Source of the DNA: an uncultured Bacteroidia bacterium | GTDB taxonomy: Bacteria; Bacteroidota; Bacteroidia; Bacteroidales; Prolixibacteraceae | Assembly (NCBI GenBank): GCA_903897145.1 | Contig: CAIUAN010000038.1 | Span: forward strand, 1 to 64,000 | Direction of reading: 5' to 3' | Length of the DNA: 64,000 bases | Shown here: in pieces, positions 44,896 to 46,688 of the stretch | Layout: each line of letters begins with the position of its first letter | How positions within the stretch are numbered: position 1 is the stretch's first letter | The notes under the pieces: model-generated | Told to the model about the DNA's origin: nothing | Seen by the model: the letters and a program-made list of their open reading frames with translations, nothing else | The model's database searches: none | Program-made: the position numbers and the translations under genes

Positions 44896-45585
44896 TTAAT
44901 AATGCTCAAAATCTAAGCCAAATTTTGACTTTAATAATGCTAAAGATGGATATTTACCGACTAATACATTCCACTTCTCCTCATCAGTATAGGGGATATC
45001 AGATTTTGGAGCCAAATCATCCGATACTTTAAACGTTATTTCAATAGCTTGATTTTCTAGTTTGCGCCGAAGAAAACCAAGTAATTTAGGTTTCAAATCT
45101 AAGGTTAAACGGTTAAATTGCAATTCAGTATCAAGTTCATAAAGTATTTCCCATTCGCCAACTATCTGTGGTTCTCTAGCACTTAGGGCTGATTTAAGCT
45201 GTGGAGCCTCAACCGCACTTACAAATGTTAACCATGCGACTAACAGCTGAGCTAATTCAAACGGTTTTTCAATCATGGAATCTCCATAAACGTCTCCGAT
45301 CGGATCAGCAATTTCTCCAAGGTTTGAATCTTTGGGCAGATCGCTTAAAGCATCTAAGATCGATGGTGTAGCGAATAAACTTCGGGCAACCGGCTTTCGA
45401 GGAGCAGATATAGAAGGAATAAGAGGAACAGGAATTGATTCTTCTGAAACTACGTCTACTGGTGCAGGAGGTGCTATTTGAGCTGGAGCAGCTATTGGAA
45501 TTGAAACATTTGAGACCTTTAACGGATCCAATTTTGAAAAAATTGGAAGCAGGGATAAAGTGGCTAAGGCGTCGTCAAGTGTTTT
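44896..45585 (-). CDS. dnaX: tau-specific C-terminal part of DnaX, reached only by a -1 frameshift
   Basis: 229 codons in the frame -1 relative to the dnaX N-terminal part, open without interruption from the A10 run to its stop. There is no ATG at its beginning; the first start-like codon is a TTG (45529-45531) and no promoter is seen. The sequence has a proline/alanine-rich linker (about the first 65 residues), then a conserved-looking alpha/beta domain of about 120 residues, the architecture of the tau C-terminus that contacts DNA polymerase alpha and DnaB. A joined product would have about 597 residues, normal for Bacteroidota DnaX. Read it as the second part of one gene. Confidence 0.8.
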   Translation of the reverse strand, partial: KTLDDALATLSLLPIFSKLDPLKVSNVSIPIAAPAQIAPPAPVDVVSEESIPVPLIPSISAPRKPVARSLFATPSILDALSDLPKDSNLGEIADPIGDVYGDSMIEKPFELAQLLVAWLTFVSAVEAPQLKSALSAREPQIVGEWEILYELDTELQFNRLTLDLKPKLLGFLRRKLENQAIEITFKVSDDLAPKSDIPYTDEEKWNVLVGKYPSLALLKSKFGLDFEHY

Positions 45586-46688
45586 TTTTTTAATAATTCT
45601 TCTAACTGAGCTATCCTAACGATGGCAAGCTCCACCAAAAAACGTTGGTTAGATGAAGTTTTATATTGGATATCGCACTCAGAAGAGAGCTGTAGAGCGC
45701 CAATTAAGAAGTTAATAGAGCATTGTGCAGCTTGTTTTTTATACCGCTCGCGTATTTCGCCTCCCACTTCAAGCAGCTGTAAGGTAATAGGATCCTGACA
45801 AATCAATAAATCGCGGAAATGCTGACCGAGTCCCATGATAAAATGGTGGGCATTAAAACCCTTATCTAAAATCTCATTAAAAATGATTAAAGTGGTTGAG
45901 ATATCAGAAGTCTGGAAGCAATCAGTCAACTTAAAATAATAGTCGTAATCTAGAACATTTAGATTGGCGATAGTGTCTTTGTAAGTAACTTTAGCGCCAC
46001 AAAAACTCACCACTTGGTCAAAAATCGAGAGTGCATCTCGCATGGCACCATCAGCTTTTTGAGCTATTATATTCAAAGCTTCCGATTCAACAACGATATT
46101 TTCTTTCTGAGCCACTTCTAGTAAATGCTTTTCTATGGCAGAAATTGAAATCCGATTGAAATCATAGATCTGACAACGAGATAATATGGTTGGTAAGATT
46201 TTATGCTTCTCCGTTGTGGCTAGAATAAAAATTGCATGAGCAGGAGGCTCTTCCAAAGTTTTTAAAAACGCGTTAAATGCTTGCGTAGAAAGCATATGAA
46301 CCTCATCGATAATATAGACACTATATTTACCCAATTGCGGAGGAATGCGTACTTTATCAACTAAGGAGCGGATATCATCGACTGAATTATTCGATGCTGC
46401 ATCTAGCTCGTGAATATTGTAGGAACGATTCTCACCAAACGATAGACATGACTCACATTTATTGCAAGGTTCTGTGTTAGGATCAAGATTAAGACAGTTG
46501 ATTGTTTTCGCAAATATTCGAGCTGAAGTAGTCTTACCTACCCCTCTAGGTCCACAGAAAAGATAGGCATGCGCGAGATGATTACTGCTAATGGCATTTT
46601 TCAATGTCGCAGTAATCGAAGTCTGACCGACCACCGTATTAAAAGTATCGGGGCGATATTTCCGTGCTGAAACGATATAATTCTCCAT
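45564..46688 (-). CDS. dnaX: DNA polymerase III gamma/tau subunit, 0-frame (gamma-like) product
   Basis: Clamp-loader ATPase. 374 residues from the ATG at 46686-46688 (MENYIVSARKYRP). An in-frame TTG 16 codons upstream is unlikely because it would cover the -7 box. Walker A GPRGVGKTTSA (about 45-55), the zinc-type cluster of cysteines in CLNLDPNTEPCNKCESC, the DEVHML Walker B and the sensor TTEKHKILPTILSRC are present. The frame ends TTA-AAA-AAA-AAA-CAC and stops eight codons after the A-run, giving a gamma-length protein. The remaining domain continues in the -1 frame. Confidence 0.92.
   Translation of the reverse strand: MENYIVSARKYRPDTFNTVVGQTSITATLKNAISSNHLAHAYLFCGPRGVGKTTSARIFAKTINCLNLDPNTEPCNKCESCLSFGENRSYNIHELDAASNNSVDDIRSLVDKVRIPPQLGKYSVYIIDEVHMLSTQAFNAFLKTLEEPPAHAIFILATTEKHKILPTILSRCQIYDFNRISISAIEKHLLEVAQKENIVVESEALNIIAQKADGAMRDALSIFDQVVSFCGAKVTYKDTIANLNVLDYDYYFKLTDCFQTSDISTTLIIFNEILDKGFNAHHFIMGLGQHFRDLLICQDPITLQLLEVGGEIRERYKKQAAQCSINFLIGALQLSSECDIQYKTSSNQRFLVELAIVRIAQLEELLKKKHLTTP
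45582..45591 (-). promoter_or_regulatory. A10 slippery run in dnaX (candidate frameshift site)
   Basis: Ten consecutive A on the coding strand; in frame it reads TTA-AAA-AAA-AAA, so a canonical A_AAA_AAA heptamer is present. A -1 ribosomal slip, or one extra A from RNA polymerase slippage, would join the two dnaX parts. I see no strong downstream stem-loop or upstream Shine-Dalgarno stimulator. Confidence 0.7.

What the first reader, a model, noticed from the sequence alone, without database searches (positions are those of the whole stretch)
44896..46688. dnaX is split by a -1 frame change on a ten-A slippery run: candidate tau/gamma switch
The gamma-length frame (374 residues) ends eight codons past TTA-AAA-AAA-AAA-CAC, and the tau C-terminal frame (229 codons) is open from the same A10 run in the -1 frame with no ATG of its own. 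E. coli makes its short form by a -1 slip, and Thermus uses transcriptional slippage on a poly-A run. Here the polarity is opposite to E. coli: the unshifted product is short and slippage gives the long one. No stimulatory stem-loop is visible, which favours RNA-polymerase slippage, or a homopolymer sequencing or assembly error.
Basis: partly seen in the sequence, partly recalled or inferred. Interest (0 to 1): 0.7.

Follow-up and report, generated by a model that had tools for sequence, protein, structure and literature searches.

The report
A-run switch between two clamp-loader proteins
In this bacterium one gene of the DNA-copying machinery probably makes both a short and a long protein because a run of ten A letters lets the reading frame slip; the break is no sequencing error, since relatives keep the same run, and this gene layout was already described in 2013.

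Summary
The split is real. On the minus strand dnaX reads 374 codons (46688-45567), crosses A10 (45591-45582) and stops at 45566-45564; the 228-codon tau tail lies in the -1 frame, to 44896. It is not an assembly error: 34 of 34 usable genomes of the family (own included; Prolixibacteraceae by inference) have the same layout with A9-A11. The layout (tau needs recoding, A10) was published in 2013 (PMC3711429), so the window is a new member of a known kind. New, as far as seven paper searches show: among 140 Bacteroidota loci with 9 or more As there, the tail sits in the -1 (74), 0 (59) or +1 (7) frame, and both non-tau frames close within 10 codons in 137 of 140 (controls 25-26%). What is conserved is the slippage layout, not the frame; single-A differences flip the default product. 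The +1 tails, the length of ten, and the rarity of such runs in genes favour RNA-polymerase over ribosomal slippage, but no RNA or protein was measured. In passing: one Bacteroidales family lacks the run and carries a conserved block, AGGCAATCRCRGGAG, exactly where a +1 shift is needed, a candidate new recoding signal.

The parts
45567..46688 (-). dnaX head, gamma-length reading frame, 374 codons
   Evidence: PRK14971 positions 1-364, E 7.4e-215; Pfam DNA_pol3_delta2, DNAX_ATPase_lid, DNA_pol3_gamma3
45582..45591 (-). run of ten A (TTA AAA AAA AAA CAC), proposed slip site
   Evidence: A9-A11 in 34 of 34 usable family genomes
45564..45566 (-). TAG stop of the gamma frame, five sense codons after the run
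44896..45582 (-). tau C-terminal tail in the -1 frame, 228 codons plus stop
   Evidence: PRK14971 positions 493-613, E 1.8e-11; dN/dS 0.175 in the genus; model pLDDT 81 for its last 150 residues
45564..45581 (-). short stretch read in both frames (gamma end HLTTP and start of the tail)
   Evidence: kept as CA[CAG] TTG A[CT]G A[CTA]G C.. TAG in the 16 genus members

Best explanation
dnaX makes two clamp-loader subunits from one gene. The mRNA with the ten genome-encoded As is translated to the short gamma form, which ends five codons after the run. RNA polymerase slips on the run; mRNAs with 11 As (or 8, or 14) put the tail in frame and give the long tau form. Other A counts close within a few codons and again give a gamma-like protein. 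Shown: the layout, its conservation, purifying selection on the tail, and closure of both non-tau frames. Inferred: that slippage happens in the cell, that RNA polymerase and not the ribosome does it, the gamma:tau ratio, and that the tail does what tau tails do elsewhere (polymerase and helicase contact; recalled).
For: 34 of 34 usable family genomes split with A9-A11. Across 140 Bacteroidota loci with 9 or more As the tail is in the -1, 0 or +1 frame (74, 59, 7) and both non-tau frames close within 10 codons in 137 of 140, against 25-26% of control positions. In family f124 all three frames occur at the same residue with A10 (G595, G651, G513). One-A flips of the default: G018 A10 split and G302 A11 continuous (same genus); G055 A11 split, G342 and G405 A10 continuous (same family). 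Tail dN/dS 0.175. Runs of 9 or more are depleted in the genome: 12 seen, 38 expected in 406 kb; of 20 runs of 10 or more, 18 lie outside ORFs of 90 codons or more. The other coding run, in a control gene, is 9 or shorter in 6 of 15 genus members; dnaX has 10 in 15 of 16 and 9 in one.
Against: No RNA or protein data. A10 also contains A_AAA_AAA, on which ribosomes can slip, and two genomes of one genus (G272, G412) have A_AAA_AAG before the gamma stop instead of a long run, so ribosomal slippage works or evolves in this phylum. Shine-Dalgarno-like motifs 4-16 bases upstream of the run are somewhat commoner than in controls (15% of 140 against 8% of 1,400), though the window has none. 39 continuous genes have no run at all, so the switch is not needed everywhere.
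Confidence: 0.8

Rival explanations
1. Ribosomal -1 frameshifting on the A run makes tau; RNA polymerase copies the run faithfully.
For: A10 holds A_AAA_AAA in any phase; -1 is the commonest offset of split genes (74 of 81 with a run); G272 and G412 have the E. coli-type A_AAA_AAG followed by the stop.
Against: 7 loci with a run have the tail in the +1 frame and 59 are continuous, yet keep the run and the nearby stops in both other frames. Seven As would do for a ribosomal heptamer, but ten are kept in 108 of 140. In the window no A_AAA_AAG and no Shine-Dalgarno-like motif; downstream folding is weak (-6.3 kcal/mol against -19.1 at E. coli dnaX), but the z-score does not pick out the E. coli control either.
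Confidence: 0.15
2. Homopolymer sequencing or assembly error; the true gene is continuous.
For: Runs of As are error-prone in some sequencing methods; the genome is a draft of 69 contigs.
Against: The same split with A9-A11 in 34 of 34 usable family genomes, including genomes with TAG directly after the run; split genes also in complete one-contig genomes of other families (G595, G631, G520, G704).
Confidence: 0.02
3. Only gamma is made; the tail is a decaying remnant.
For: The tail is less conserved than the head (dN/dS 0.175 against 0.022; identity to relatives 46-79% against 86-95%).
Against: dN/dS well below 1, open in all 16 genus members tested, a tau-tail hit in each of the 34 family genomes.
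Confidence: 0.02
4. DNA-level phase variation: cells of a clone differ in run length, so some make gamma and some make tau by default.
For: Run length differs by one A between close relatives with flipped default.
Against: Closure of both non-tau frames in genes of all three offsets fits a mixed mRNA pool; leaving a replication subunit out of part of the cells is hard to see as useful (inference, not measured).
Confidence: 0.02

Closest known systems
Split dnaX with tau made by recoding (Antonov et al. 2013, PMC3711429; passages read)
   Same: Two ORFs, -1 offset, A10 before the gamma stop, tau needs the shift; the paper reports 17 such genes from 12 genera, nine with A10
   Different: Nothing in the window gene itself. 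The paper's passages seen here do not treat continuous genes with the run, +1 tails or flips of the default; its supplement with the species list was not available
Thermus thermophilus dnaX transcriptional slippage (PMC1088944, PMC5009743; passages and one section read)
   Same: Long A run at the gamma/tau border; non-tau frames close soon after the run
   Different: A9 and tau is the unshifted product in Thermus; here A10 and gamma is unshifted. The 59 continuous Bacteroidota genes with a run have the Thermus layout
E. coli dnaX programmed -1 ribosomal frameshift (L254; PMC5009743)
   Same: Gamma and tau from one gene
   Different: E. coli: tau unshifted, A_AAA_AAG, upstream GGGAG-type motif, stable downstream fold; none of these in the window, polarity reversed

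Membership tests
Split dnaX, tau by recoding (PMC3711429 type) | Head and tail of dnaX in two overlapping frames, -1 at the DNA level | tested here: met
Split dnaX, tau by recoding (PMC3711429 type) | Poly-A run (10 in nine of the 17 published genes) at the frame change | tested here: met
   A10 at 45591-45582
Split dnaX, tau by recoding (PMC3711429 type) | Conserved frame-change position in relatives | tested here: met
   34 of 34 usable family genomes
Split dnaX, tau by recoding (PMC3711429 type) | Both proteins made | not testable with these tools
   needs protein data
Transcriptional slippage of the Thermus kind | Run of nine or more As | tested here: met
Transcriptional slippage of the Thermus kind | Non-tau frames stop soon after the run | tested here: met
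   window: gamma frame five codons, third frame at once (KKNT*); 137 of 140 loci within 10 codons
Transcriptional slippage of the Thermus kind | mRNAs with variable A count | not testable with these tools
   needs cDNA
Transcriptional slippage of the Thermus kind | tau is the unshifted product | tested here: not met
   gamma is unshifted
E. coli-type ribosomal frameshift | A_AAA_AAG heptamer | tested here: not met
   AAA AAA AAA CAC
E. coli-type ribosomal frameshift | Shine-Dalgarno-like stimulator upstream | tested here: not met
   upstream 16 bases AGTTAGAAGAATTATT
E. coli-type ribosomal frameshift | Stable stem-loop just downstream | tested here: inconclusive
   -6.3 against -19.1 kcal/mol, but the z-score also fails on the E. 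coli control
tau C-terminal (polymerase-binding) domain | Fold and sequence of the tau tail | tested here: inconclusive
   sequence: PRK14971 end, E 1.8e-11; fold: best Foldseek E 0.015 (entry of SirA with DnaA domain I), DciA entries, E. coli polymerase complex chain 5fku_E at rank 20, E 0.31; none at E 0.001; no PDB sequence match up to E 1

The most novel reading that the evidence does not exclude
In Bacteroidota the thing under selection at dnaX is polymerase slippage itself: an A10 run is held at the gamma/tau border while the frame around it drifts, so single-A changes keep flipping whether gamma or tau is the genome-encoded default without losing either product. Where the run was lost, other recoding took over in some lineages: A_AAA_AAG in one genus and, in one Bacteroidales family, a +1 signal not described before that is built on AGG CAA YCR.
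Probability: 0.65. Interest if true: 0.72.

Novelty: new member of a known kind. Interest (0 to 1): 0.5.

Why it matters
It removes a false pseudogene or assembly-error reading of a replication gene in a whole family. It offers an evolutionary test that separates slippage by RNA polymerase from slippage by the ribosome: the run is kept in all three frames. If right, gamma and tau are both maintained in much of Bacteroidota, and close relatives that differ by one A are a natural experiment on the gamma:tau ratio. The +1 block in family f2 would be a further way of making the same two proteins.

Tried and rejected
Assembly error, remnant tail and phase variation were considered and set aside (see rivals). 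Folding near the run: mean z -0.41 downstream and -0.73 upstream, control -0.05 (140 each), but the E. coli control scores 0.19, so the z-test cannot see even a known stem-loop and no structure claim is made. PDB sequence search of the tail: nothing up to E 1. Fold search: no match at E 0.001. Lysine tRNA genes were not counted.

Rows dropped: 8 of 196 loci were not classified (truncated or no tail hit). L064 was first counted as a -1 split, but its zero frame runs on 157 codons past the run and breaks later, so it was dropped; it is still inside the tally of the 80 named loci, the null and the tree labels; one search leaves it out. L121 (in-frame TAG, no run) was kept apart. The sample is not random: one search took 20 regions mostly for their short open frame, and partly for families with both layouts; one search was picked by hand from the phylum list. 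Only the per-family set and the named set are free of that choice, and the named set is the best 80 of a capped list. dS was not usable in 49 of 120 tail pairs and 106 of 120 head pairs. 'Intergenic' means outside an ORF of 90 codons or more; four of the 18 lie within 8 bases of one. The 2-mismatch search of the +1 block hit 104 of 104 genomes, mostly by chance (the backwards control also hits), and served only to fetch 30 loci, 27 of them dnaX; the count given in the report comes from loci picked by head similarity.

Full report
What is there. On the minus strand the dnaX head runs from 46688 to 45567 (374 codons), with TAG at 45566-45564. Ten As lie at 45591-45582 in TTA AAA AAA AAA CAC TTG ACG ACG CCT TAG. 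The tail is open in the -1 frame for 228 codons and ends at 44896. The head matches PRK14971, a DNA polymerase III gamma/tau model, at positions 1-364 and the tail matches the same model at 493-613.

Not an error. Of 61 genomes searched (own plus 60 relatives) 37 belong to the window's family; 34 of these have a usable dnaX junction (G003, G010 and G035 do not), and 34 of 34 are split with the tail in the -1 frame: A10 in 30, A11 in 3, A9 in 1. In several, TAG follows the run at once (ACC TTA AAA AAA AAA TAG). The family is Prolixibacteraceae by inference: the named Sunxiuqinia locus L053 falls inside the family's clade on the head tree, and NCBI places that genus there. One further member, G302 (seen), has A11 and a continuous frame, while G018 of the same genus has A10 and a split. 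Complete one-contig genomes of other families (G595, G631, G520, G704) are split at an A run as well.

Wider picture. I classified 196 distinct loci; a tau tail was found in 188; L064 was then set aside. Of 140 loci with a run of 9 or more As the tail is in the -1 frame in 74, in frame in 59 and in the +1 frame in 7; the run is 10 long in 108. Without such a run: 40 in frame (one, L121, with an in-frame stop), 5 with a +1 tail, 2 with a -1 tail. This collection is enriched for split genes by my own choice of regions. Two fairer sets: 21 other families of the order, one genome each with a usable gene (of 24 searched): continuous with run 6, split -1 with run 3, split +1 with run 2, +1 tail without run 1, continuous without run 9; and 80 named loci: continuous with run 34, continuous without run 26, split -1 with run 12 (13 before L064 was dropped), split +1 with run 1, +1 without run 1, in-frame stop 1, unclassified 4. 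Named continuous genes with A10 include Pedobacter, Mucilaginibacter, Hymenobacter, Dyadobacter, Rufibacter, Chitinophaga, Aquimarina and Flagellimonas loci. Of the 26 named continuous genes without a run, 10 are titled Bacteroides, Bacteroidaceae, Prevotella or Prevotellaceae. Of 39 continuous genes without a run, two have an in-frame run of seven As with a nearby -1 stop and none has A_AAA_AAG with one.

The frame is not conserved, the layout is. After the run both non-tau frames meet a stop within 10 codons in 137 of 140 loci (exceptions L048, L072, L166), against 26% of 5,628 control positions in the heads and 25% of 7,480 in the tails. For the 59 continuous genes the distances are shorter than in the tail control with p = 8e-31 (related sequences are not independent, so this is only a guide). 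In family f124 three frames occur at the same residue with A10: G595 -1, G651 0, G513 +1. In another family G055 has A11 and a split, G342 and G405 A10 and a continuous frame. On a tree of head proteins the frame state of 139 run-bearing loci changes at least 24 times; with L064 still in, 25 times in 140 against 43 to 57 for shuffled labels. In the fairer subset of 59 loci it changes 13 times, against 14 to 19 shuffled.

RNA polymerase or ribosome. For polymerase slippage: +1 tails in 7 loci with a run, ten As where seven would do, and the layout of stops known from Thermus (PMC1088944 and PMC5009743; passages and one section). The 2013 paper itself takes frame changes in different directions at poly-A sites as a sign of transcriptional slippage (passage). 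The genome avoids such runs in genes: in 406 kb, 12 A/T runs of 9 or more against 38 expected from a first-order model; in the whole genome 20 runs of 10 or more, 18 outside ORFs of 90 codons or more. The other coding run, A11 at G000:C18:179500 in a long ORF, is 9 or shorter in 6 of 15 genus members and under 9 in two, while dnaX has 10 in 15 of 16 and 9 in one. For the ribosome: A10 contains A_AAA_AAA, and G272 and G412 have A_AAA_AAG before the gamma stop, whereas G065, G178 and G349 of the same family have A10. Shine-Dalgarno-like words stand upstream of the run in 15% of 140 loci against 8% of 1,400 controls; the window has none.

Tau tail. In the genus the tail has dN/dS 0.175 (71 of 120 pairs usable) and the head 0.022 (14 of 120). 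The model of the last 150 residues (pLDDT 81, pTM 0.58) is nearest to entries with DnaA domain I and DciA; best Foldseek E 0.015, so this is a hint only.

Known or new. Antonov et al. 2013 (PMC3711429; abstract and passages; supplement not available) describe split dnaX with tau by recoding, 17 genes, nine with A10. Atkins et al. 2016 (PMC5009743; one section and passages) repeat it and remark that a single base can reverse the roles. The window is thus a member of a described kind. I found no paper on continuous Bacteroidota dnaX with A10, on flips of the default product, or on the +1 block below, in searches (open PubMed Central papers only; most results seen as listings).

A side finding. 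In the Bacteroidales family coded f2, 30 of 30 loci taken as the best head matches to one member (L219, itself with the block) carry AGGCAATCRCRGGAG in the zero frame just before the gamma stop, and an open +1 frame of 188 to 287 codons beyond it; the +1 tail was confirmed as tau by profile in the five that were in the main survey (L129, L219, L220, L221, L223). The stop lies 0 to 5 codons after the block, and in L320 the +1 frame has a stop ending two bases before it, so the shift must occur at the block and does not depend on the stop as in prfB (recalled). Of 20 further f2 loci picked to cover other genera, 5 have the block, 3 a close variant (L336, L344, L346), 6 (genera g366 and g372) GTC AGG CAA TCR TGA GG, and 6 are continuous, one of them with A10. 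The shared core is AGG CAA YCR. AGG is the rarest arginine codon in these heads (31 of 599). Among the 196 loci of the main survey the core occurs at the junction only in those five. A +1 ribosomal shift at a slow AGG with downstream help, as recalled for yeast Ty elements, is a guess.

Noticed in passing
Bacteroidales family f2: L219-L221, L223, L129, L302-L329, L330-L336, L342-L348 (dnaX junction): No A run; tau tail in the +1 frame; conserved block AGGCAATCRCRGGAG (core AGG CAA YCR) just before the gamma stop: a candidate +1 recoding signal.
   Followed up: partly
L213 (G272) and L175 (G412), family f30, dnaX junction: Split dnaX with CAA AGA AAA AAG TAG (E. coli-type A_AAA_AAG) where other genera of the family have A10.
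   Followed up: partly
L260 1500-1512 (G000:C18 near 179500): A11 at a domain linker of an intact ORF that looks like a GH3 glycosidase fused to a serine hydrolase (naming from recall); run kept at 10 or more in 9 of 15 genus members, broken in two.
   Followed up: partly
L121 dnaX junction: In-frame TAG between head and tail, no A run; error or readthrough not told apart.
   Followed up: no
L214 (G067) dnaX junction: A10 present, zero frame ends at codon 407 and no tail hit; tail seems broken elsewhere.
   Followed up: no
L067, end of locus: The contig end inside dnaX reads like a sequencing-library adapter (recalled).
   Followed up: no
G000:C54:8095-8270 (L271): Three A10 runs spaced 83 bases apart at a contig end, looking like a tandem repeat.
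   Followed up: no
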